From a virus: a DNA stretch of 30,724 bases. This document shows positions 8,518 to 29,717 of the stretch, one piece after another. The DNA lies in the IMG/VR virus record IMGVR_UViG_3300036045_000255, positions 1-30,724 of that record. One strand, written 5' to 3'. The position numbers were made by a program, and so were the translations under genes. Position 1 is the first letter of the stretch; every line of letters starts with the position of its first letter. The notes beneath the pieces are model-generated. The model worked only from the letters and a program-made list of their open reading frames with translations. It had not been told where the DNA came from and made no database searches.

Positions 8518-8946
8518 TCAGGCCAGGGGGCCGGTCGTGGTGTAGTGCAGGACGACGGTGATCACCGCCGCCTTCAGGGCCGCCGCGCCCTCGACAGTCA
8601 GATCGACCGAGGCCGGGGCCTCCGGTTCGACCCAGTCACAAAGGCCGCCAAGGGTGGGGTCGGCTTCAATCGCCGCGCCGATGGCGGTGATCAGGTCATC
8701 AAAGGCGCTGGCCCGGCCGGTGCCCGCCTGGACGACGACCTCCAGCTCGGCGCGGTGCTGGTAGTGGTAGCGCAGGGGCGACAGCGTCACTTCCGGCTCG
8801 CCCGGCTGACCATCGCGCAGGATGATCAGCCCGGCCGCGGGGATCCGCTCGGGCAGCACCTCGTCACGCAGGGTGAGGGCGGCAAGCGACTGCAACCGCG
8901 CAAGCAGCGCGGCGAGGACGGTTTCGCGGGTGGCGGGCATTGACAT
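8518..8946 (-). CDS. Probable tail terminator / minor tail protein (142 aa)
   Basis: The protein begins MSMPATRETVLAALLARLQS and has the alternating helix-strand pattern of small tail terminator proteins that cap the tube before joining to the head. I recognise it mainly by position, just upstream of the tube gene, and by size; related proteins are often given misleading enzyme names. There are two possible starts, ATG 8946 and ATG 8940. On the minus strand GGGAGG lies 11 nt before the first and GAGG 9 nt before the second, so the start is uncertain by two codons. Upstream is the divergent toxin cassette, so this gene may need its own promoter or readthrough from the head genes across the insertion. 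Confidence 0.65.
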   Translation of the reverse strand: MSMPATRETVLAALLARLQSLAALTLRDEVLPERIPAAGLIILRDGQPGEPEVTLSPLRYHYQHRAELEVVVQAGTGRASAFDDLITAIGAAIEADPTLGGLCDWVEPEAPASVDLTVEGAAALKAAVITVVLHYTTTGPLA

Positions 8947-8986
8947 AAACCTCGCAGCCTCCCTTTAGAGGTTGCCGTGTTGCAGG

Positions 8987-8998
8987 CACCGTACGGTG
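8987..8998. promoter_or_regulatory. Perfect 12-bp palindrome in the divergent intergenic region
   Basis: CACCGTACGGTG is a perfect palindrome midway between the divergently read tail terminator gene (start 8946) and toxin gene (start 9059). It is a candidate operator or part of a promoter for the toxin cassette. No convincing -35/-10 pair could be assigned to either strand in the surrounding 112 bp. A palindrome of this size in high-GC DNA may be chance. Confidence 0.3.
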
Positions 8999-9058
8999 GG
9001 GTGAACGCTTCTTTACCAACTGCCTCTACAAACCACCCGCGGGTCAGCGGGAGGTTCC

Positions 9059-10738
9059 ATGCAGCACAACTTACGGGAATTTCTCCGCCACGGCGGCAGC
9101 GGGCAGTACGTTTTCGTGCGGCAGAACGGGACCGTGTTCGGCTATCGCGCGGGCTTTTCTATCAAGTCGACTTTCCATGGCTACGCGGACCTGCGAGCCG
9201 ATTTCACCGACCGATTGGACCGCGTGATCGCCGACAACAGCCGGATGCTGTTGAACGCCTTGACGCCCCCGGACACCGTGCCGTGGGTGACCGAAGCCGA
9301 CCTGCGCGATGTTTCGGACGCGAAGGAAGAGGCGTTGCGCCAGTGGGACACTCGCCTGACGGCCATCTTCGAGGAATATGAGACCCACCCGCAGCGCCTT
9401 CGCCCCCTGCGAACCGCCATGGAAGAACGCTTGCTTCGGGCCTTCGCAGGGCTCGTCAACCAGCTTCGGCAGCAGGATTTGGGGATCGAGCGGTACATCT
9501 GGCGTTCCCAGGACGACGCGAAGGTCCGTGACAGCCATGCAGAGTACGACGATCAGGTGTTTCGCTGGGACGAGCCGCCCGCAGGCGGCCATCCGGGACA
9601 GGCGCACAACTGTCGGTGTTTCGCAGAGCCCATCGCGCCAGGATCGCGGAATGATGTGATACTGGCAGAACTTGCCCTTCCAGCCGAGGCTCCCGTGGAC
9701 GCCATCTTGCGTCGCCTTGGTCTCCGTGCCGTCGCGATCACACCGCTTGGAGCTGCCGCCCTGGCGGCTTTGGCCGCCAGCGATGCCCTGAAGGAATTCA
9801 CGCGTCTGGCCACCGAACGCCGCCTGCAACGTGCGGCCGAAATCCTTGGCGTCGATCCCGGATCGGCCGAAGGGCTCCTTGCGGCTATGGCTCACGAACT
9901 GGTGCAGGAAGCAGTCATCTCTGGTCTCGGGTCAAGTTTGCCGAAGTCGGTTGAGGCTGCACAGATCGCAGGGCAGGCGGCCGCGCTATACGAGATGTTG
10001 AACCCCGGCACCATCGTGCGTGTCATCGAAGGGGACAGGGCCGCACAACTCGCCCTGGGAGACTTCGTGCAGCGGGCATACAGCGCTTTTTCAGAAGGCC
10101 GATTGCGACTGCAGGACGGCACGATTGCCCAAGGCTGGGTCGAGGTTTTCCCCGAACTCACCGAGGGCGAGCGCCGGTTGGGTGAACTTCCCGGCTTCAC
10201 GCCGGAACGCATCGACCAGTGGCTGGAAACCTACCCGGCCGAGGTGCTTGGCCTGCCGAACCACACGGGTTCGCCCCCTGTCGAAGATCCTACCGGCAAC
10301 ATCATCTCCACGCCGATCCCGGATGAAGCGGGGCCGAACATTGTCGAGGTGCGACCCGGCGAGCCTACGCCGATCGGCCCCAACGATGACGACGCGACAC
10401 GGCGTGCCATTCAGCGCGAGAACGAGTCCGCGCAACTTCTCGCCGGAAGTGGCCTTGACGTTGTGCAGAACCCGGTAGTGTCGGGGCCGAAGAAACCCGA
10501 CTATCTGATCAATGGCGAGATTTATGATCATTATGCGCCATCGACGGATGTGCCTCGGAACATTTGGAGCGAAGTTCAAGGCAAGGTAGAGAGGGGGCAA
10601 ACGAACAACGTCGTCATCAGTCTTCGGGACAGCGATGTGCAGGAGGAGGCTTTGCGCAGGCAGTTTGAAGAATGGCCAATCGAAGGTCTGAGAGAAGTCA
10701 TCATCATTCGCCGGGACGGCACCATAGGGAGACTCTGA
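9059..10738 (+). CDS. MuF-domain polymorphic toxin with C-terminal CdiA-type tRNase domain
   Basis: This 559-aa protein is modular. Around residues 145-192 it has a Mu F / SPP1 gp7-like head-morphogenesis motif, RYIWRSQDDAKVRDSHAEYD, ending with GQAHNCRCF. A long helical middle follows, with a Pro/Gly-rich linker around residues 400-440. The last 112 residues, starting at about 448 (RRAIQRENESAQLLAGSGLD), match the CdiA C-terminal tRNase family: KKPDYLINGEIYDHYAP, NIWSEVQGKVERGQ, FEEWPIEGLREVIIIRRDG. Candidate PD-(D/E)xK-type catalytic residues are E454, D481, D490 and K509. A clear GGAGG lies 4 nt before ATG 9059. It is read against the flanking phage genes and overlaps a small downstream gene. 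Known MuF toxins are thought to be packaged in or released with phage particles; here the target (tRNA) and delivery are inference. Confidence 0.85.
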   Translation: MQHNLREFLRHGGSGQYVFVRQNGTVFGYRAGFSIKSTFHGYADLRADFTDRLDRVIADNSRMLLNALTPPDTVPWVTEADLRDVSDAKEEALRQWDTRLTAIFEEYETHPQRLRPLRTAMEERLLRAFAGLVNQLRQQDLGIERYIWRSQDDAKVRDSHAEYDDQVFRWDEPPAGGHPGQAHNCRCFAEPIAPGSRNDVILAELALPAEAPVDAILRRLGLRAVAITPLGAAALAALAASDALKEFTRLATERRLQRAAEILGVDPGSAEGLLAAMAHELVQEAVISGLGSSLPKSVEAAQIAGQAAALYEMLNPGTIVRVIEGDRAAQLALGDFVQRAYSAFSEGRLRLQDGTIAQGWVEVFPELTEGERRLGELPGFTPERIDQWLETYPAEVLGLPNHTGSPPVEDPTGNIISTPIPDEAGPNIVEVRPGEPTPIGPNDDDATRRAIQRENESAQLLAGSGLDVVQNPVVSGPKKPDYLINGEIYDHYAPSTDVPRNIWSEVQGKVERGQTNNVVISLRDSDVQEEALRRQFEEWPIEGLREVIIIRRDGTIGRL

Positions 10739-11046
10739 TGGCGATATTCTACACCGCCTATTCCGACTTAGACCTGCCTGACCTCACGCAGCGACTAAAC
10801 GCAGCAGCTAGGAGTGCCGGAGACGTCTGGGAAGCTTGGAGTGCAAGTGATGACCTGGGGCCGTTCCATTTGGAAATCATGGCCGAATATGGTGTTCAAG
10901 ACAGCTTCAAGAGCGAGTGTTTCACACGACACTCGAAAGACCATACCGTGCAGGCCCGACAGGCAATGCTTGCCTTCTTCGAGTCCTTGCCAGGACGAAA
11001 GCTGCTTCTGAACGGCGACGTGTTTGTCGCGTTCCGTCCCGCTTGA
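10738..11046 (+). CDS. Probable immunity protein for the MuF-CdiA toxin
   Basis: This 102-aa protein (MAIFYTAYSDLDLPDLTQRL ... RKLLLNGDVFVAFRPA) starts at ATG 10738-10740, overlapping the toxin stop as TGATG, with GGGAG about 6 nt upstream. It is small, mildly acidic in its first half, and has no signal peptide or membrane segment, so it should be cytoplasmic. Its job as antitoxin is inferred from the strict position after a CdiA-type nuclease domain. I do not recognise a specific immunity family with certainty. Base composition by eye is less GC-rich than the phage genes on either side, as often seen for toxin-immunity cargo. A frame open upstream to 10672 is only the out-of-frame toxin end. 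Confidence 0.75.
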   Translation: MAIFYTAYSDLDLPDLTQRLNAAARSAGDVWEAWSASDDLGPFHLEIMAEYGVQDSFKSECFTRHSKDHTVQARQAMLAFFESLPGRKLLLNGDVFVAFRPA

Positions 11047-11082
11047 CGCTTCGGCACTGAATCTGAGGTGCGATCCTGTCTT

Positions 11083-11712
11083 TCAAGGATTTGATGCGCG
11101 CCACCCCGCGACGATCCGCCCCGGCACGCCGTCGATGGCCTGTTCCGCATCCCGCGCCAGATCCAGCCGTTTGCGCAGCTTGACCTGCGGTACCAGCAGG
11201 AAGATCGGCGCAGTCACCAAGCCCCGGCCGGTTTTCGACCGTGATGCCACCGCCCGGCCCTTGCTGTTCAGCCGACCCTCTGCCACCAGCAGGCACGGCC
11301 CCCGGCGCCTATAGATGAACCGCAGGTTCAAACCGGTGCGTCGCTCCCATTCACTGGGGGTGATGCGGCCGCCGCGGGTGGATTTGCCTGCGGCGGGGGT
11401 GGGGATGGCCAGCCAGAACCCGTTTCGCGACCGGATCAACGGCCCCGCGTCATGCGCGCCGACGATCACCGGGGCGTTCGACCAGACCAGCGCCGCGGCG
11501 TTCAGGCTTTCGCCGCCCTTGGGATAGGTGGCTAGCCGGATAGAGTTGCCGAGCCGGGTGCCCAGCCCGGCGCCGGTAATCTGGCCGCGCCAAGCGGACT
11601 TCAAGTTCGTGCCCGCCTCGCGCATGGCGGTGGTGACGGCCCTTTCACCGGCAGCGATTTCCGCCTGCATCAGGGCGGCGAGGTCGGGGCTGATCTCGAG
11701 CTTCAGCTTCAT
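11083..11712 (-). CDS. DUF6441 family head-tail completion protein
   Basis: This 209-aa protein begins MKLKLEISPDLAALMQAEIA and contains WRGQITGAGLGTRLGNSIRL, FWLAIPTPAAGKSTRGGRIT, PSEWERRTGLNLRFIYRRRG and a basic C-terminus. I recognise it as the DUF6441 family found in lambda/GTA-like prophages next to the head-tail joining gene. The role, probably neck or tail completion, is by analogy to HK97 gp10-type proteins. ATG 11712 overlaps the preceding stop as ATGA. Downstream, instead of the tail terminator that would normally follow, is the convergent toxin cassette; only 36 bp separate its TGA from the immunity gene stop and no good terminator hairpin is visible there. Confidence 0.78.
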   Translation of the reverse strand: MKLKLEISPDLAALMQAEIAAGERAVTTAMREAGTNLKSAWRGQITGAGLGTRLGNSIRLATYPKGGESLNAAALVWSNAPVIVGAHDAGPLIRSRNGFWLAIPTPAAGKSTRGGRITPSEWERRTGLNLRFIYRRRGPCLLVAEGRLNSKGRAVASRSKTGRGLVTAPIFLLVPQVKLRKRLDLARDAEQAIDGVPGRIVAGWRASNP

Positions 11713-20152: not shown

Positions 20153-21010
20153 CTACGCGTCTTCGGTTCCGGCACCCAGCGCTTTGAGCAGCTGCTGGTG
20201 GCGATCATAAGCATCACGTGAACTGTGCGTGTAGGTGGTTATCGAAAAGCCGCTGCCCGTATTTTCAGAGACTTTCTCTTGGACTCGACCGTCTGCCAAG
20301 AAATCAACCTTGCGGCCACCATGGCTTTCGATTTCATGCTTTTCCGCGAAAGCATCCAAGAGGTCCCAAATTGGGTTGCGTGTCTGTGGCTTTGATCGTT
20401 TCTGGCGGCCCTTTGATGGTTGAATTGGCAATACGCCAGAATCATCCCACCCGTCAGAGTTCGTCGAGCTGCTTTCCGAATTGTCACCGACGGAAGCATC
20501 AGAACGATGCCTGTCCGACACGCCGTTATCCCCGCCGTTCTCCTTGTAGGCCCGGACCCTGTTAGCTTCTTGGTTGATTCGTTGCCTGTAGGCATAGTCG
20601 TCTTCAAACCAGCCTTGGCGCGCACTCTGGCCGTTATTTGCCAGGTACTGCTCGTTCGCTTCCTGCCGCATCCTAGTGTTGAAGGAGTCGTCCCCTTCGA
20701 ACCAGCCTTGCCTCGGTGTTTCGCCCGAAATTCGCGAAACTGAACTCACATTCGCTTCGTGCTCTATCCGCGAACGATAGTCGTCGTTTGACTCGAACCA
20801 GCCCTGACTAGGTGCAGATCCAGTATTGCTCTCAATTGTGCGCTCATTCGCTTCATCGGCAATACGGCTTGCGTAGGCGTCGTCGCTCTCGAACCAGCCT
20901 TGCTTAGGCGCAGAGCCAGTGGAGTCCGCAATTATGCGTTCGTTGCTCTCTCTTTCGATTCGATCTCGATAATCAGAGTCCGACTCGAACCAGCCTTGAC
21001 CAGATCCCAT
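20153..21010 (-). CDS. Repeat protein with five QGWFE units, unknown function (285 aa)
   Basis: Translation from ATG 21010 (GGAG 7 nt upstream) starts MGSGQGWFESDSDYRDRIER. Five tandem units of about 32 residues begin at residues 5, 37, 69, 101 and 132, each with QGWFE, an acidic/aromatic D-x-D/A-Y step, an R-I/M motif, EAN (ESN in unit 1) and a TGSAP-like spacer. A Ser/Asp-rich linker follows (about 160-200), then a compact C-terminal domain of about 75 residues with NPIWDLLDAFAEKHEIESHG and SITTYTHSSRDAYDRHQQLL. There is no signal peptide or membrane segment. GC is visibly lower than in the phage genes. I have seen QGWFES-type repeats in uncharacterised bacterial proteins but know no function. 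It may be horizontally acquired cargo of the prophage. Confidence 0.75.
   Translation of the reverse strand: MGSGQGWFESDSDYRDRIERESNERIIADSTGSAPKQGWFESDDAYASRIADEANERTIESNTGSAPSQGWFESNDDYRSRIEHEANVSSVSRISGETPRQGWFEGDDSFNTRMRQEANEQYLANNGQSARQGWFEDDYAYRQRINQEANRVRAYKENGGDNGVSDRHRSDASVGDNSESSSTNSDGWDDSGVLPIQPSKGRQKRSKPQTRNPIWDLLDAFAEKHEIESHGGRKVDFLADGRVQEKVSENTGSGFSITTYTHSSRDAYDRHQQLLKALGAGTEDA
20531..20998 (-). repeat. Five tandem ~96-bp coding repeats (QGWFE units)
   Basis: Three units are exactly 32 codons, the fourth 31, and the fifth degenerates after EAN-RVRAY. At DNA level the plus strand repeatedly shows a conserved TCGAACCAGCC block at the QGWFES start of units 1-4 (unit 5 has a variant). 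Units 1 and 2 are most alike and 4 and 5 most diverged, consistent with stepwise duplication. Confidence 0.85.
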
Positions 21011-21038
21011 GTTGCCGCTCCATGGCCGCTCTAGGGAA

Positions 21039-21067
21039 AGTATAGCCGAAGATTGACCCCTCGTCAC
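21039..21067 (-). promoter_or_regulatory. Possible sigma70-type promoter for the repeat-protein gene
   Basis: On the minus strand GTGACG (21067-21062), a 17-nt spacer and TATACT (21044-21039) are followed by a roughly 22-nt leader with GGAG and ATG 21010. The -10 is good and the -35 partial. The 135-bp gap (21011-21145) otherwise shows no gene; an open frame extending into it is unlikely coding. Confidence 0.4.
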
Positions 21068-21145
21068 CATCGGTGGCCAAGCGTCTCCCCTCCTTCCAAG
21101 AACGCACATGAGCGCACGAGCGACGTAAGCACGCTCCTTTTGCAC

Positions 21146-22477
21146 TCACTGTTTGTGGCTGCGTACCGCGCACCTCCCCGTCGCCATCTCCCAGCGTCGC
21201 ACGGCCACATCGCAATAGACCGGGTCCAGTTCCACCGCGCAGCAGCGCCGCCCGGTGCGTTCCGCGGCGATCAATTGGGTTCCGGAGCCGCAGAAGGGCT
21301 CGTACACCAGGTCGCCGGGGTTGGTGAAGGCCGCCAGCACAGCCTCCACCAGCGCCACGGGGAATACGGCCGGGTGTGACCCGGCGGCACCCAAGCCCCC
21401 TTTATGGCGCATGATGCGGAAGACGCTGTCGGGGATGCGATGGCTCTGGATCGCATTGCCGTAGCCGGTCTTGCGGTGAACCGTGCCGTCAGCCCCGCGC
21501 AGGCCGCCGCCGCCGAGGGTTTCGCCCGCGTGCTTGCTCTCGACCGTCTTGTTGGGTTTGCGGGGCTGGCGGTTGAAATGGAAGACGAACTCGTGGGACG
21601 GCGCCAGCCGCCCATTCCAGTCGCCCGGCAGGCCGGGCCCCTGGTCCCATACATACCAGCCGAAGCGCCGCCAACCCTGCGCGCGCATCCAGTCGACCCA
21701 GCCCTCCCAATACGGGATCCATTCGCCGTCGCGATGGACGAGGCCGAGGTTCACCAGCAGCTGGGCATCGGCGGTGACCGGGGCCGCGGCGAAGACGCCC
21801 TGCATCAGCGCATCCCAATCGCCGACCTTTTCCTTCGCCGCGCCATAGTCGCGCTGCTGGGCGTAGGGCGGGGAGGTGAACATCAGCGAGGCCTGCGCTC
21901 CGTCCATCAGCCGCGCCACCACGGCCGGGTCGGTCGCATCGCCGCAGATCAGCCGGTGGTCGCCCAGCGCCCAGATGTCTCCGGGGCGGGTAATAGGTTC
22001 GGCCGGGGCCTCGGGGATGGTGTCGGCGGTGTCGTCGTCGATGGGCGCGCGGTCGTTGGCATTGTGCAGCAGCGCGTCCAGTTCATCTTCGGGGATCCCG
22101 ATCAGCCCGAGGTCGAAATCCTCGGCCATCAGCCCGCGCAATTCCTCGAGCAGAAGCGCCTCGTCCCACCCGCCCAGTTCGGTCAGCTTGTTGTCGGCGA
22201 TCCGGTAGGCCCGGCGCTGCGCCTCTGTCAGATGGCCCAGCACGATCACCGGGGCCTCTGCCAGCCCGAGCTGGGCTGCGGCCAGGATGCGGCCATGGCC
22301 CGCGATCAACTCGCCGTCGGCGGCGACGAGGCAGGGGACGGTCCATCCGAACTCGGCCATGCTCGCGGCGATCTTCGTGACCTGGTCGGTATCATGGGTC
22401 TTGGCGTTGCGGGCGTAGGGCCGCAGACGGGCCAGAGGCCAGTGTTCGATCCGGCCGGGCAGGAGGGGCGCATTCAT
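21146..22477 (-). CDS. ParB-domain DNA methyltransferase (N4/N6 type), copy 1
   Basis: This 443-aa protein has a ParB/Srx-like N-terminal domain (LRPYARNAKTHDTDQV, GELIAGHGRILAAAQLGL at about 50-75) and a beta-class methyltransferase domain: TSPPYAQQRDYG at about residue 200 for target-base catalysis and YEPFCGSGTQLIAAERTGRR at about 392 for SAM binding. The SPPY motif suggests N4-cytosine or N6-adenine methylation. ATG 22477 overlaps the stop of copy 2 as ATGA. No restriction partner is adjacent, so it may protect phage DNA from host restriction or mark it for regulation (inference). It is intact. Confidence 0.88.
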   Translation of the reverse strand: MNAPLLPGRIEHWPLARLRPYARNAKTHDTDQVTKIAASMAEFGWTVPCLVAADGELIAGHGRILAAAQLGLAEAPVIVLGHLTEAQRRAYRIADNKLTELGGWDEALLLEELRGLMAEDFDLGLIGIPEDELDALLHNANDRAPIDDDTADTIPEAPAEPITRPGDIWALGDHRLICGDATDPAVVARLMDGAQASLMFTSPPYAQQRDYGAAKEKVGDWDALMQGVFAAAPVTADAQLLVNLGLVHRDGEWIPYWEGWVDWMRAQGWRRFGWYVWDQGPGLPGDWNGRLAPSHEFVFHFNRQPRKPNKTVESKHAGETLGGGGLRGADGTVHRKTGYGNAIQSHRIPDSVFRIMRHKGGLGAAGSHPAVFPVALVEAVLAAFTNPGDLVYEPFCGSGTQLIAAERTGRRCCAVELDPVYCDVAVRRWEMATGRCAVRSHKQ

Positions 22478-23736
22478 GCCGCGAGCCGCTTGGCCTTGAG
22501 GGCGGCGAAGGTCTCGCCGGTTTCCGCCAGCAGGGCCTCATGCCCTGTGAAGGATTGCCAGCGCTCGATGGCGACATCGACATAGGCCGGGTTCAACTCG
22601 ATCCCGAAGCAGACCCGGCCGGTGGTTTCGGCCGCGATCATTGTCGTGCCGGATCCCATGAAGGGCTCATAGACCGCCTGGCCGGGGGACGAGTTGTTCA
22701 GGATCGGGCGGCGCATGCATTCGACCGGCTTCTGGGTGCCATGCACGGTGTCGGCATCCTGATCCCGGTTGGCGATCTGCCACAGCGTGGTCTGCTTGCG
22801 GTCGCCCGCCCAATGGCCCTTGCCCTTGGCGCGCACCGCATACCAGCAGGGTTCGTGCTGCCAGTGGTAATCGCCGCGGCTCAGGACCAGCCGGTCCTTG
22901 GCCCAGATGATCTGTGACCGGATGACGAAGCCAGCGGCCAGCAGGCTGTCCGCCACGGTGGCGGCATGCAACGCGCCGTGCCAGACATAGGCGACGTCGC
23001 CAGGGAACAGCGCCCAGGCTTCGTGCCAATCGGCACGGTCGTCGTTCAGCACCTTGCCGGTGCGCTTGGTTTTTGCCGCGCCCGCCTGGTTGCGCCAGGA
23101 GGGATCGTACTCCACGCCATAGGGCGGGTCGGTGACCATCAGCAGGGGGCGAACATCGCCCAGCAGGCGCCCAAGGACATCGGCCGCAGTGCTGTCGCCA
23201 CAGATCAGCCGGTGCGCGCCCAGCTGCCAGAGGTCGCCGGGCACGGACACTGGCGTGACCGGAAGCTCCGGCACATCGTCCTCGCCCTCGACCGGACCAT
23301 CGTCGCCCAGCGCCTCGGGATCCCGCAGCAGCGCGTCGAGGTCATCATCGCTGATGCCAAGCAGCGTCAGGTCGAAATCCTCGGCCAGCAACCCTGCGAT
23401 CTCGTCGTGCAACAGGGCTTCGTCCCATTCGCCCAGTTCGGTCAGCTTGTTGTCCGCGATCCTGTAGGCCCGGCGCTCGGCCTCGTCGAGGTGGCTGAGC
23501 CGGATCACCGGCACCTCGGTCAGCCCGAGCATGGTCGCAGCCAGCACCCGGCCATGGCCCGCGATCAGCTCGCCGTCGTCGGCAACCATGCAGGGCACGG
23601 TCCAACCGAACTTGGCCATGCTGGCTGCGATCTTCGCCACCTGATCGTCGCCATGCATCTTGGCATTGCGGGCATAGGGGCGCAGCCGGGCAATCGGCCA
23701 AGATTCAACCTGGCTCGGCGCGAAGACGAGGTCCAT
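22474..23736 (-). CDS. ParB-domain DNA methyltransferase (probable N6-adenine), copy 2
   Basis: This 420-aa paralogue of the next gene shares the ParB-like N-terminus almost residue by residue (LRPYARNAKMHGDDQVAKIA, GELIAGHGRVLAATMLGL, YRIADNKLTELGEWDEALL) but has a different methyltransferase domain: VTDPPYGVEYDP at about 200, a WAKDRLVLSRGDYHWQHEPC segment, GTQKPVECMRRPI and YEPFMGSGTTMIAAETTGR at about 356. DPPY with a later FMGSGT indicates beta-class adenine or cytosine-N4 methylation. ATG 23736 is the start, with a terminator-like hairpin 38 bp upstream. It is first of a two-gene methylase pair typical of Rhodobacteraceae prophages beside terminase. Confidence 0.88.
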   Translation of the reverse strand: MDLVFAPSQVESWPIARLRPYARNAKMHGDDQVAKIAASMAKFGWTVPCMVADDGELIAGHGRVLAATMLGLTEVPVIRLSHLDEAERRAYRIADNKLTELGEWDEALLHDEIAGLLAEDFDLTLLGISDDDLDALLRDPEALGDDGPVEGEDDVPELPVTPVSVPGDLWQLGAHRLICGDSTAADVLGRLLGDVRPLLMVTDPPYGVEYDPSWRNQAGAAKTKRTGKVLNDDRADWHEAWALFPGDVAYVWHGALHAATVADSLLAAGFVIRSQIIWAKDRLVLSRGDYHWQHEPCWYAVRAKGKGHWAGDRKQTTLWQIANRDQDADTVHGTQKPVECMRRPILNNSSPGQAVYEPFMGSGTTMIAAETTGRVCFGIELNPAYVDVAIERWQSFTGHEALLAETGETFAALKAKRLAA

Positions 23737-26239: not shown

Positions 26240-26808
26240 CACTGTTCCCCTGCCTCCGCTTCGTCTTCCTCAGCGGGCACGCTGTCCCAGATGTCTTTGA
26301 TCATATCAATCTGAGAGGGATACACATTTTCGAGGTCCCGATACTGTGAGAATTTCTGGGCCGCCCCAAAATTTGGACCTCTCCGGTTAAGTGGTGGCTC
26401 GGCACTAACTATTATTATTCCTTCTAGTGAGTTGAGTACCTCATTGAGTTCAAGCCCATTGGCGTTGACTTGATCCTGCAAGATATACCCGTCTCCCTCG
26501 TGCAGAATTCCTTTTAGGCCAAACCATGAGAACTTTGTCCACCTCTCAGAGAGATGATCGTTTGTGTGGCTTCGCAGCCTTCCGAATAGAGTTGCGTTTC
26601 CGAAGCCAGCCTGTCCGGTATAAAGCAGCCTGAAGTTATCGTCATACAGGCAGTATATTCCGACTTGATCGCGAAAGTTGACTTGTTGCTGTCGCCTTTC
26701 AACCACGTGGCTGCCGATTAAGTGTCCTCGTGGGTTTCCTCGCCGACCGCCAGGATTCCAGTGAACCGCCTCGCGCTTCCAGAATAACCCATAGTTCTTG
26801 ATCATCAC
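26239..26808 (-). CDS. GIY-YIG nuclease-domain protein (189 aa)
   Basis: Residues 50-65 give VGIYCLYDDNFRLLYTG, a GIY-YIG signature with YTG in place of YIG. Arginines follow in LFGRLRSH (77, 79), and the C-terminal family pattern LEGIIIVSAEPPLNRRG provides the conserved glutamate (129) and asparagine (141). These are the residues GIY-YIG nucleases use for DNA cleavage, so activity is plausible. The N-terminal 45 residues (WKREAVHWNPGGRRGNPRG) are basic and may bind DNA. ATG 26808 overlaps the Mod stop as ATGA, and its own stop overlaps the helicase start. GC is distinctly lower than in the flanking genes, with many A/T-ending codons, pointing to separate acquisition. It may be a second nuclease of the restriction system (inference). 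Confidence 0.82.
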   Translation of the reverse strand: MMIKNYGLFWKREAVHWNPGGRRGNPRGHLIGSHVVERRQQQVNFRDQVGIYCLYDDNFRLLYTGQAGFGNATLFGRLRSHTNDHLSERWTKFSWFGLKGILHEGDGYILQDQVNANGLELNEVLNSLEGIIIVSAEPPLNRRGPNFGAAQKFSQYRDLENVYPSQIDMIKDIWDSVPAEEDEAEAGEQ

Positions 26809-29717
26809 TCCACCGCAAACACCTTCATCACCTCATCGCCAAGGTGGTTGATCACCTTCACCGCGATCCGCCCGGACTTCGGCTTCGCGAACGGGCGCGA
26901 GGTGTCGGAATAGAGGCTCTCCCAGGCCTCCTCGTCGATCTCGGCCTTCAGCGTGGTCTTCAGCGCCTTGTAGGGGTCGTTGGCGCCGAGGAAATAGGCG
27001 TGGCGGACGAAGAACGACTCCTCGTTGTAGTCGGTGTCGAGCATCCACAGGGCGATGCCGTCCGTCCCCTCGCTCTGCACTTCGCCGGTCTGGGGCTTGA
27101 ACACGTCCACGCCGAAGACCTGCACTTGCACCATGCCATCCCCCGCATCGGTGATCCGGATATCCGGTTCGCCGAAGATCACGAACAGGTTGCCCGCGCC
27201 GGTGGATTTCAGGTCGCCGCCCATGTGCAGGTCGGGGTTCATCCGGGCCTTCAGGATGCGGATGCGGCCCAGCTTGTCGAACTCGCTGCTATGGGCGTCA
27301 TAGTTGAAGGCGCAGGCGATCAGCACGTCGAAACCGGCGGCGCCTGCCTCGCGCGCCGCCGCCACCAGATCGGGGCGGGACACCGTGCCGAACTCGGGGC
27401 CGATGAACACGCCCGCGCGGCGCTGGGTGTCGCCTTCCATGAAGGTGCCCTCGGCGGCGATCCAGTTGCCGGGCCAACCCTTGAGGCTGGAAAAGGTGAT
27501 CCGGTCCTCCTTATGCGCCTGCTGCACGCCTGCGGCTTTCAGGTTTTCCAGGATCATATGGGCGAAGTCGGTGAAGTCGCGCGGGGCCTCGGCGGCCTTG
27601 CGCTTGCCCTCGGCGGCATCAAAGGTGTCGATCAGCTCGTCATCCCAATCGACGGCAAGGGTGCGGTGGGGCGACAGGCTTTCCACGGTGAAGGGGCCTG
27701 CGACGCGGACCTTGGAGGCGTCGGCAAAGGGCTTGTCGTAGAGGTATTCGAACTCGGCCTTCGCCGCGATGCTGGCGTCGATTTCGCGCTGGCGGGCGAT
27801 GCGCGCCTCCCAGAACCGGCTTAGCGCGGCTTGCGCGGGGGCGGGCCAGCCGGAGGGGGCCTCGCGCGGGATTTCCCATTCCATCAACCCGTTCGCCGGG
27901 GCCATTTCGCCGGAGGGGAGCTTGACCTGCCCGCTCGCGGTGAAGTCGATCCTGGCGCCCGCGCGGCCGCCGGTTTCCACCTTGAAGGGGGTGGGGTGGA
28001 GGGCCAAGGCGGCGTTCAGGGCGGCGATGGCGTCCTCGACGGCGGGCTGGAGCCGCTCCCAGATCACGTCGATTTCGGCGTTGTTGGCGATGGATTTCAG
28101 CGTGATGTGCGGCACGCGGTCATAGACGAAGCCCAGGCGGATGCTGCCGTGGGTGGGGGTGGATTTGGGGACCGATCGCGTGACCTCGGCCTCTTTCGCC
28201 TGCCCCTCGGCACTGTCGGCCAGCAGGTAATAGGGATAGCGCGCGCCCATCAGGCGGGAGCGGGCGAGCGCGATGGCGACGCGGCTGGTGTCGATGGTGA
28301 TCCAGCGCCGCCCCCATTGTTCGGCGACATAGGCCGTGGTGCCCGAGCCGCAGGTGGGATCGAGCACCAGATCGCCGGGGTCGGTGGTCATCAGGATGCA
28401 GCGGGCAATCGCACCATCCGAAGTCTCGACAACATACTGTTTGTCACTTCGAATAACTACATCTTCCCAAATGTTATTCGCTTCATAGCCGGGGTAGTCT
28501 TCAAGAAACCGCCGATACCTGATGCTCTTGCCTGTGTTGCCGACCCTGCCTCCCTTGACGAGACGTTCCAACCCCGGTTTGTTTGTCTTCCAGCTTCTGC
28601 CCGCGTTCGATGAGAATACTAGCCCTTCGAAGGGCTGCGGAAATGTGCAGGTCGGGGTAAATCCCGACGAAACCAGATCGCCATACTGGAATGTGCGGAC
28701 ACTGGCGGGAATCGTCTCTGGCACGTCCTTTTCGGTCCGAGTGAGCGGGCGATATAAACCAGTGTCAACCTCATAAGCGGTATCGTATCTTGCGCCTGTG
28801 GTCGCACCCTCGCCCTGCTTTTTCACAAGCAAAGGTTTCCTAAATTTATACTTTTCTCTGTCCTTTGCAAACCAAACAATAAAGTCGGCCACAGACTTCA
28901 AGCTATTTGAGCCGAGTCCGCCTGTGGTCTTGAGTGTGATCAAGGAACAGAAATTCTCATCCCCAAACACCTCATCCATCAGCGCCCGCACGCGGTGCAC
29001 GTTCTCGTCGCCGATCTGCACGAAGATGCTGCCGCTCTCGCTCAGCAGGTCGCGCGCCACGGTCAGCCGGTCGCGCAGGTAGGTCAGGTAGGAATGGATG
29101 CCGTCCTTCCAGGTGTCGCGAAAGGCGCGGACCTGTTCGGGTTCGCGCGTCACATGGGTCTTGTCGCCATCCTTGACATCGCGGCTGGTGGTGGACCACT
29201 GGAAGTTGGAGTTGAACTTGATGCCATAGGGCGGGTCGAAATAGATGCACTGCACCTGACCGCGCAGCCCTTCCCGCTCGGCGAGGGATGCCATCACCGA
29301 CAGGCTGTCGCCGGAAATCATCCGGTTCGACCAGTGCTGGTCGTGCTGGTAGAACTCGGTCGCAGCCTCGGCATCGGGCAGGCCGTTGAAATCGGCGAAC
29401 ATGTCGAATTGCGGCGCGTCCTTGGCGGCCTTGGCCCGGTTGGCCGATTCGCGTTTCAGGTCGTCGATGATGACCTTGGGGTGGACCTTTTCCTGGATGT
29501 ACAGCGGCGGGGCCTGAACGATCAGGTCGGACCAGTCCTGCTCATCCTTGCCGCGCCAGACCAGTTGCGGGTCCAGATCGCGGTTGCGGCGTTCGTAGGC
29601 CAGCTGGATGGGCGTCTTGTCCTGATCGCGCATCAGGCTTTCAAACTCCGCCGTCGGAATGTTCTTGCGCGTGGCGTCGTGGGTGAGGGTTTCGACCTCG
29701 ATGGGTTTCTTGGCCAT
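26805..29717 (-). CDS. Type III-like Mod DNA methyltransferase (970 aa)
   Basis: This beta-class N6-adenine methyltransferase resembles type III Mod but is large. The N-terminus has DKTPIQLAYERRNRDLDPQL and QEKVHPKVIIDDLKRESANR. The catalytic motif is IYFDPPYGIKFNSNFQW at about residue 160, followed by FGDENFCSLI. A variable target-recognition part covers about residues 250-432, then LDPTCGSGTTAYVAEQWGRR (SAM binding) at about 450. A long C-terminal region (550-970) with VEVFK-like and FGVDVFKPQTGEVQSEG segments is typical of the enlarged Mod partner of BPTD_3080-type endonucleases. ATG 29717 is 3 bp after the upstream stop. The recognition region (about 28420-28960) has a much lower GC than the rest. 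It modifies host DNA and probably guides the restriction subunit. Confidence 0.9.
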   Translation of the reverse strand: MAKKPIEVETLTHDATRKNIPTAEFESLMRDQDKTPIQLAYERRNRDLDPQLVWRGKDEQDWSDLIVQAPPLYIQEKVHPKVIIDDLKRESANRAKAAKDAPQFDMFADFNGLPDAEAATEFYQHDQHWSNRMISGDSLSVMASLAEREGLRGQVQCIYFDPPYGIKFNSNFQWSTTSRDVKDGDKTHVTREPEQVRAFRDTWKDGIHSYLTYLRDRLTVARDLLSESGSIFVQIGDENVHRVRALMDEVFGDENFCSLITLKTTGGLGSNSLKSVADFIVWFAKDREKYKFRKPLLVKKQGEGATTGARYDTAYEVDTGLYRPLTRTEKDVPETIPASVRTFQYGDLVSSGFTPTCTFPQPFEGLVFSSNAGRSWKTNKPGLERLVKGGRVGNTGKSIRYRRFLEDYPGYEANNIWEDVVIRSDKQYVVETSDGAIARCILMTTDPGDLVLDPTCGSGTTAYVAEQWGRRWITIDTSRVAIALARSRLMGARYPYYLLADSAEGQAKEAEVTRSVPKSTPTHGSIRLGFVYDRVPHITLKSIANNAEIDVIWERLQPAVEDAIAALNAALALHPTPFKVETGGRAGARIDFTASGQVKLPSGEMAPANGLMEWEIPREAPSGWPAPAQAALSRFWEARIARQREIDASIAAKAEFEYLYDKPFADASKVRVAGPFTVESLSPHRTLAVDWDDELIDTFDAAEGKRKAAEAPRDFTDFAHMILENLKAAGVQQAHKEDRITFSSLKGWPGNWIAAEGTFMEGDTQRRAGVFIGPEFGTVSRPDLVAAAREAGAAGFDVLIACAFNYDAHSSEFDKLGRIRILKARMNPDLHMGGDLKSTGAGNLFVIFGEPDIRITDAGDGMVQVQVFGVDVFKPQTGEVQSEGTDGIALWMLDTDYNEESFFVRHAYFLGANDPYKALKTTLKAEIDEEAWESLYSDTSRPFAKPKSGRIAVKVINHLGDEVMKVFAVE

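What the first reader, a model, noticed from the sequence alone, without database searches (positions are those of the whole stretch)
9059..11046. Phage-borne MuF-CdiA tRNase toxin with immunity gene, inserted antisense inside the structural operon
A MuF head-morphogenesis motif (RYIWRSQDDAKVRDSHAEYD, HNCRC) is joined to a C-terminal domain of the CdiA tRNase type, with E454, D481, D490 and K509 in a plausible PD-(D/E)xK arrangement, followed by an overlapping small gene. Polymorphic MuF toxins are established for temperate phages, mainly of Firmicutes. Here one lies in an alphaproteobacterial lambda/GTA mosaic, opposite in direction to the tail and head genes that flank it. Inference: it is a movable competition cassette whose toxin rides in the particle or kills cells lacking the immunity protein.
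Basis: partly seen in the sequence, partly recalled or inferred. Interest (0 to 1): 0.82.

Follow-up and report, generated by a model that had tools for sequence, protein, structure and literature searches.

The report
GTA-regulated toxin cassette in a phage
A phage of Rhodobacterales bacteria carries a tRNA-cutting toxin and its antidote whose promoter matches those that switch on the hosts' gene transfer agents, suggesting that these bacteria may make competitor-killing toxins together with their DNA-sharing particles.

Summary
ORF 9059-10738 joins a MuF module to a CdiA-C tRNase domain (4g6v_A, E 5e-29; E454, D481, D490 and K509 invariant). The 102-aa downstream protein folds most like the CdiI of that same solved complex.

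Relatives in 41 virus and 75 genome loci keep the MuF module and swap at least five toxin/immunity pairs, with orphan and immunity arrays. In phages the cassette is one cargo of a hotspot between the tail terminator and DUF6441; most other phages carry unrelated inserts there. This explains the antisense orientation.

The surprise is the promoter. Window 8990-9019 (CGTACGGT-N14-TTTACC) matches a motif learned, without MuF genes, from promoters of Rhodobacteraceae gene-transfer-agent (GTA) endolysin genes. It lies 38-41 nt before the ATG in 23/23 phage and most of 28 solitary chromosomal MuF toxins; control genes almost never score. The MuF-derived pattern in turn finds GTA lysis and TspA-like tailspike promoters genome-wide. 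In Rhodobacter capsulatus GafA binds the promoters of those genes.

So this is a MuF polymorphic toxin apparently wired to the host GTA programme. Co-regulation is well supported; delivery inside GTA (or phage) particles is inferred. I found no published GTA-MuF link.

The parts
8518..8946 (-). tail terminator; left border of the cargo hotspot
   Evidence: phrog_4204, E 1e-42; borders other inserts in 68 related loci
8990..9019 (+). GTA-late-type promoter element CGTACGGT-N14-TTTACCAA (putative GafA site plus CtrA half-site), 39 nt before the toxin ATG
   Evidence: only exact match in the window, 0 expected in shuffles; best PWM score in the window, 18.4 against 12.4 for the next; PWM learned from GTA endolysin promoters
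9059..10738 (+). MuF polymorphic toxin, 559 aa
   Evidence: PF04233 and PF18451
9059..9670 (+). conserved MuF module, aa 1-204
   Evidence: 82-93% identical in most phage homologues
9671..10351 (+). exchangeable middle region, aa 205-431 (at least three variants or absent in relatives)
10400..10735 (+). CdiA-C tRNase toxin domain, aa 448-559; E454, D481, D490, K509
   Evidence: 4g6v_A, E 5e-29; invariant residues
10738..11046 (+). immunity gene, 102 aa
   Evidence: overlaps the toxin stop by one base; travels with this toxin type; AlphaFold model pLDDT 92.5, best PDB match 4g6v_B, the CdiI of the same complex
11083..11712 (-). DUF6441 protein; right border of the cargo hotspot
   Evidence: PF20039, E 5e-45

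Best explanation
The cassette is a polymorphic MuF toxin/immunity pair transcribed from a promoter of the Rhodobacterales GTA late class. SHOWN BY SEQUENCE: the toxin and immunity families; swapping of toxin modules on one conserved MuF module; the location in a phage cargo hotspot; the motif shared with GTA lysis and TspA-like promoters at fixed spacing and distance. INFERRED: GafA (with CtrA) of the host switches the toxin on in the cells that make GTAs; the MuF module puts the toxin into particles made at that moment, most likely GTA heads, otherwise co-produced phage heads; the tRNase kills or arrests recipients that lack the immunity gene. The phage is then a vehicle that spreads a host-regulated weapon, and the immunity gene protects its lysogens.
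For: Toxin. Immunity. Polymorphism on one N-terminus (CdiA_C, EndoU, RNase A-type, a colicin-DNase/WHH type and at least two unclassified types), with orphan and immunity arrays. Promoter: (a) the MuF-derived pattern CGNACGGT-N14-TTWACC gave 28 hits against 8 for the reversed control in 18 genomes and 59 against 32 in 151; of 56 hits read, 11 were MuF, 16 GTA endolysin and 6 TspA-like spikes. (b) Reverse test: an unsupervised motif from 30 endolysin promoters chosen without regard to MuF is CGnaCGgt-N14-TTAACc. It scores above the 99% null in 23/23 phage and 23/28 solitary MuF promoters, in nearly all of them 38-41 nt before the ATG, but in 5/526 control promoters (joint test). (c) The 14-base spacing is exact in both gene classes. 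(d) MuF genes only about 50% identical, on plasmids or other contigs, keep it. (e) The GTA g1 promoters of several genomes carry CGNACGGT between -35 and -10. (f) The holin behind the endolysin is Pfam GTA_holin_3TM, 'for gene-transfer release'. (g) Papers: GafA binds the g1, gafA and lysis promoters (PMC6363796) and the tspA promoter (PMC13420450); CtrA-P acts with GafA on late genes with putative CtrA half-sites (PMC9638019). All 12 tested genomes with solitary toxins carry a GTA gp10 homologue.
Against: No expression, binding or particle data for any MuF toxin of this family. GafA binding to CGNACGGT itself is inferred, not shown. The phage copies descend from one another, so 23/23 is not 23 independent events. 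Five of 28 solitary copies lack a good motif (L053, L067, L070, L097, and L092 just under the 99% cut). 23 of the 56 pattern hits read lie upstream of other genes, some of them chance. RcGTA is not known to contain a MuF protein. GTAs are near-universal in this family, so co-occurrence with GTA is weak evidence.
Confidence: 0.6

Rival explanations
1. Ordinary MuF polymorphic phage toxin: made in the lytic cycle, packed into this phage's own head through the portal and injected with phage DNA; the GTA-like promoter only adds expression or is an evolutionary relic.
For: MuF proteins bind portals and a MuF toxin was found in phage StB12 particles (PMC5576092); the MuF module is highly conserved among these phages; many copies lie in prophages.
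Against: The cassette is antisense and away from the portal, whereas 85% of phage muf genes lie near a portal or terminase gene. Of 72 informative related phages 68 have other cargo and no detectable MuF gene in the locus. About 25 relatives sit alone in chromosomes with no shared neighbours. The motif is kept in both classes and in 50%-identical relatives.
Confidence: 0.2
2. Addiction, exclusion or bacteriocin module: the toxin acts inside the lysogen or is released by GTA-mediated lysis as a diffusible toxin; the MuF module has no particle role.
For: The promoter class is that of the lysis genes and the TspA-like spike, so toxin would appear as cells lyse; stand-alone copies exist outside phages; immunity arrays fit selection for protection.
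Against: A conserved 204-aa MuF module would be unexplained; CdiA-type nuclease domains need a delivery route, and no receptor-binding or translocation domain was recognised in the middle region.
Confidence: 0.1
3. The shared motif is a general CtrA-dependent late promoter of Rhodobacterales, so the toxin is tied to CtrA/quorum-sensing physiology rather than to GTA production specifically.
For: TTAACC resembles the CtrA half-site; the pattern also precedes an autoinducer synthase and three BrnA-type antitoxin genes.
Against: The CGNACGGT half is also at the core of the g1 promoter, to which CtrA does not bind in R. capsulatus; 22 of the 45 non-MuF hits read are GTA lysis or TspA-like genes.
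Confidence: 0.1

Closest known systems
MuF polymorphic toxins of temperate phages (Jamet et al. 2017, PMC5576092); Apk2 and Bxa (PMC11699363)
   Same: N-terminal MuF, swapped C-terminal toxins shared with other toxin families (that paper names the cd13442 tRNase of B. pseudomallei CdiA-2), adjacent immunity genes
   Different: Those lie mostly near portal or terminase genes, mainly in Firmicutes (Bxa in Bacteroides), and are described as exclusive to phages and prophages. Here the gene is antisense in a cargo hotspot or alone in Rhodobacterales chromosomes, with a GTA-late-type promoter.
CdiA-CT/CdiI complex of Burkholderia pseudomallei (PDB 4g6v)
   Same: Toxin domain homologous over 108 residues with the four putative active-site residues; the immunity model is closest to 4g6v_B
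   Different: Joined to MuF instead of a two-partner-secretion adhesin; immunity sequence not detectably similar by phmmer
RcGTA late genes: lysis cassette rcc00555/6 and tailspike tspA (PMC6363796, PMC9638019, PMC13420450)
   Same: Promoter architecture CGNACGGT-N14-TTWACC at a short distance before the start codon (endolysin 41-58 nt; spikes 68-161 nt; MuF 41-43 nt from TTWACC to the ATG)
   Different: Encodes a toxin/immunity pair, patchily distributed (7 of 151 genomes), not a known GTA component
Rhs/CDI orphan toxin-immunity arrays (from general knowledge)
   Same: Displaced C-terminal modules and extra immunity genes behind the intact toxin (L099, L115, L023, L088)
   Different: On a MuF scaffold, and partly in phages

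Membership tests
MuF polymorphic toxin | N-terminal MuF domain over the curated cut-off | tested here: met
   PF04233, 50.1 bits against cut-off 29.6
MuF polymorphic toxin | C-terminal domain swapped among homologues and shared with other toxin families | tested here: met
   at least five toxin types on one N-terminus; the same domain in an E. coli haemagglutinin
MuF polymorphic toxin | immunity gene directly downstream and specific for the toxin type | tested here: met
MuF polymorphic toxin | gene in the packaging module near portal or terminase | tested here: not met
   between tail terminator and DUF6441, antisense; or solitary. In the source paper this is typical (85%), not universal, so it does not exclude membership
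MuF polymorphic toxin | toxin present in particles, toxicity neutralised by immunity | not testable with these tools
   needs experiments
CdiA-CT tRNase / CdiI family of 4g6v | homologous nuclease domain with conserved active-site residues | tested here: met
CdiA-CT tRNase / CdiI family of 4g6v | immunity protein of the same CdiI fold | tested here: met
   best PDB match 4g6v_B, TM 0.67, E 1.7e-3, probability 1.00; modest E-value
Contact-dependent inhibition (CDI) system | CdiB/CdiA two-partner secretion | tested here: not met
   MuF N-terminus, no adhesin domain; the cassette is not a CDI system
GTA late regulon | promoter motif of GTA late genes | tested here: met
GTA late regulon | GafA/CtrA-dependent expression | not testable with these tools
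   needs reporter, RT-qPCR or EMSA
GTA structural component | presence in GTA particles | not testable with these tools
   needs proteomics of particles

The most novel reading that the evidence does not exclude
Rhodobacterales arm their gene transfer agents: a chromosomal (and phage-borne) family of MuF toxins is made with GTA particles, loaded into them and injected together with donor DNA, so that GTAs reward immune kin with genes and kill or arrest non-immune recipients; phages have captured the weapon and keep it under host GTA control.
Probability: 0.4. Interest if true: 0.94.

Novelty: new variant of a known kind. Interest (0 to 1): 0.8.

Why it matters
Why bacteria keep GTAs, whose producers die by lysis, is a long-standing question. 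A toxin/immunity pair under the GTA late promoter would give producers a kin-selected benefit (killing or excluding non-kin, favouring immune kin) and makes that testable in a standard laboratory system (Rhodobacter capsulatus). It also places MuF toxins outside phages and suggests a regulatory tie in which phage cargo is controlled by a host-domesticated phage.

Tried and rejected
(1) GTA promoter as an exact copy: AACGGT-N14-TTWACCAA hits only MuF promoters; the relaxed form was needed. (2) A first Gibbs run on 160-nt endolysin upstreams locked on to the conserved coding end of the preceding gene and gave no MuF signal; it was repeated on the last 92 nt. That region choice was mine and was made after the first failure, with the motif position already known. 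(3) A shared chromosomal neighbour for solitary toxins: none found. (4) Empty hotspot in sister phages: none found, other cargo instead. (5) GTA-type motif in other hotspot cargo: none above the 99.9% null. (6) A GafA-like regulator in the phage: no informative Pfam or PHROG hit in the unassigned ORFs; not excluded. (7) TspA match by PDB sequence: no TspA entry found; identity rests on domain layout and what looks like lysS next to it in L190. (8) Full-length MuF model: pLDDT 62.5, pTM 0.31, too poor for fold search.

Full report
OBSERVATION. Pfam gives Phage_Mu_F (E 5.4e-13) and CdiA_C (E 5.1e-20), both above curated cut-offs. phmmer aligns residues 448-556 with chain A of 4g6v, the Burkholderia pseudomallei CdiA-CT/CdiI complex, at E 5e-29. 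E454, D481, D490 and K509 are invariant in ten homologues, including one from an E. coli plasmid haemagglutinin. The 102-aa product has no convincing sequence match to a PDB chain but is weakly similar to the gene behind that E. coli homologue (29% over 56 aa). Its AlphaFold model (pLDDT 92.5) has 4g6v_B, the immunity partner of the very same toxin, as best match (E 1.7e-3, TM 0.67). So the toxin and its partner point independently to one known complex.

RECURRENCE AND POLYMORPHISM. A scan of IMG/VR found 41 loci and a scan of species genomes 75, nearly all Rhodobacterales. Residues 1-204 stay 82-93% identical in most phage copies while the rest changes. C-termini are CdiA_C, bacterial EndoU, CdiA-CT RNase A, a Colicin-DNase/WHH type on a Pukyongiella plasmid, and at least two types without a Pfam match; small genes follow most of them. 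Orphan C-terminal modules and immunity arrays occur: L115 holds five further immunity-type genes behind the toxin's own, L099 repeated toxin/immunity pairs. R. capsulatus SB1003 plasmid pRCB133 carries a 5'-truncated relative with another toxin type and immunity gene and, behind it, a gene 90% identical to the window's immunity gene. These are the marks of a polymorphic toxin system.

WHERE IT SITS IN PHAGES. Where both borders are visible the cassette lies between the tail terminator and DUF6441, opposite to both, apart from a few rearranged or tandem loci. Eighty relatives of the tail terminator were fetched: of the 72 that reach DUF6441 or MuF, 68 carry other inserts of 525-2931 bp, often of lower GC, 4 carry MuF and none is empty. 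The junction is a cargo hotspot, and those 68 phages show no MuF gene in the sequence read. The MuF protein is therefore probably not needed for their heads. The antisense orientation is that of an inserted cargo gene.

SOLITARY RELATIVES. About 25 genome loci have no phage neighbour and no shared neighbour of any kind, unlike the MuF toxins of Jamet et al., which are mostly near portal or terminase genes and in prophages. In the MuF tree (midpoint root, for drawing only) phage copies form one group (100/99) that also holds six solitary ones, among several solitary lineages. A chromosomal origin with capture by phages fits but depends on the root.

THE PROMOTER. Reading the upstream DNA showed one block shared by phage and solitary genes. 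As CGNACGGT-N14-TTWACC it occurs once in the window (8990-9017, 0 expected). Scanned in 18 genomes it gave 28 hits against 8 for the reversed control, and in 151 Rhodobacteraceae genomes 59 against 32. Of the 56 hits whose DNA was read, 11 precede MuF genes, 16 a GH108 endolysin and 6 a beta-helix spike. The endolysin is followed by a holin that Pfam names GTA_holin_3TM, so this is the GTA lysis cassette. The spike has the layout of TspA as described in PMC13420450 (about 180-residue N-terminal domain, then beta-helix; Pfam), and in one locus what looks like lysS lies next to it.

REVERSE TEST. Endolysin promoters were collected by protein similarity alone, and a Gibbs sampler given their last 92 bases returned CGnaCGgt-N14-TTAACc. 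This matrix puts 23 of 23 phage MuF promoters and 23 of 28 solitary ones above the 99% null, nearly all at 38-41 nt from the ATG (one, L076, scores at another place), against 5 of 526 other upstream regions in the same loci. With score above 12 and distance 36-46 nt required together, 1 of 526 controls passes. The 14-base spacing is exact in both classes. MuF genes only 48-55% identical (L044, L112-L114, L329) keep it. In the window and ten other phage loci the MuF promoter is the best-scoring site. The g1 promoter of several of the GTA clusters read has CGNACGGT between its -35 and -10. A caveat on method: the first sampler run on 160 bases found the coding end of the preceding gene instead and the region was then shortened.

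WHAT IS KNOWN OF THAT PROMOTER CLASS. In R. capsulatus GafA binds the g1, gafA and lysis-cassette promoters (PMC6363796) and the tspA promoter (PMC13420450); CtrA-P acts with GafA on late genes, whose promoters hold putative CtrA half-sites (PMC9638019). I read CGNACGGT as the likely GafA site and TTWACC as the CtrA half-site; this is inference.

MECHANISM. Most likely the host GTA regulators switch on the toxin when cells make and release GTAs. A MuF domain is a head-associated, portal-binding module (SPP1 gp7; a MuF toxin was found in StB12 particles, PMC5576092). Particles assembled then are GTAs and, in an induced lysogen, phages. Delivery in GTA heads is my preferred reading (0.4 as a stand-alone claim); delivery in phage heads and release by GTA lysis are the rivals. 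Twelve of twelve genomes with solitary toxins that were tested carry a GTA gp10 homologue, but so do most relatives.

NOVELTY. The protein is a new member of the MuF toxins, with one typical feature (packaging-module location) tested and not met. The GTA-type promoter, the solitary loci and the phage hotspot make it a new variant. Full-text searches for GTA with MuF or polymorphic toxin found nothing relevant; most subscription papers are not covered.

Noticed in passing
window 8947-11082 and L242-L321: The junction between tail terminator and DUF6441 is a cargo hotspot in this phage family: 68 of 72 informative relatives carry other inserts, with diverse unrelated ORFs in either orientation.
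   Followed up: partly
L115:8620-10930: Immunity array: five further immunity-type genes behind one MuF toxin and its own immunity gene, in a prophage of a MAG labelled Exiguobacterium (probably mislabelled Rhodobacterales).
   Followed up: partly
L045:7986-9377 (R. capsulatus SB1003 plasmid pRCB133): The GTA model strain carries a truncated relative with another toxin and immunity gene plus an orphan gene 90% identical to the window's immunity gene.
   Followed up: partly
L044:8001-10195 (Pukyongiella litopenaei plasmid p3): MuF module 49% identical joined to a WHH/colicin-DNase toxin with an SMI1/KNR4 immunity gene, with no phage genes annotated nearby and with the same promoter motif.
   Followed up: yes
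L203, L208, L184, L189, L201: The GTA-type motif also precedes an autoinducer synthase, a PF04860 portal gene and three BrnA-type antitoxin genes: candidate further regulon members.
   Followed up: partly
window 20153-21145: A 330-aa minus-strand ORF has a weak, sub-threshold match to Ntox43 (E 8e-4); identity unknown.
   Followed up: no
window 21146-23736: Two adjacent ParB-like/DNA-methyltransferase fusion genes, and a third methyltransferase-type gene at 26805-29717.
   Followed up: no
L006:6143-7004: A MuF-CdiA_C toxin gene cut short in its nuclease domain, followed by what look like IS66-type transposition genes.
   Followed up: no
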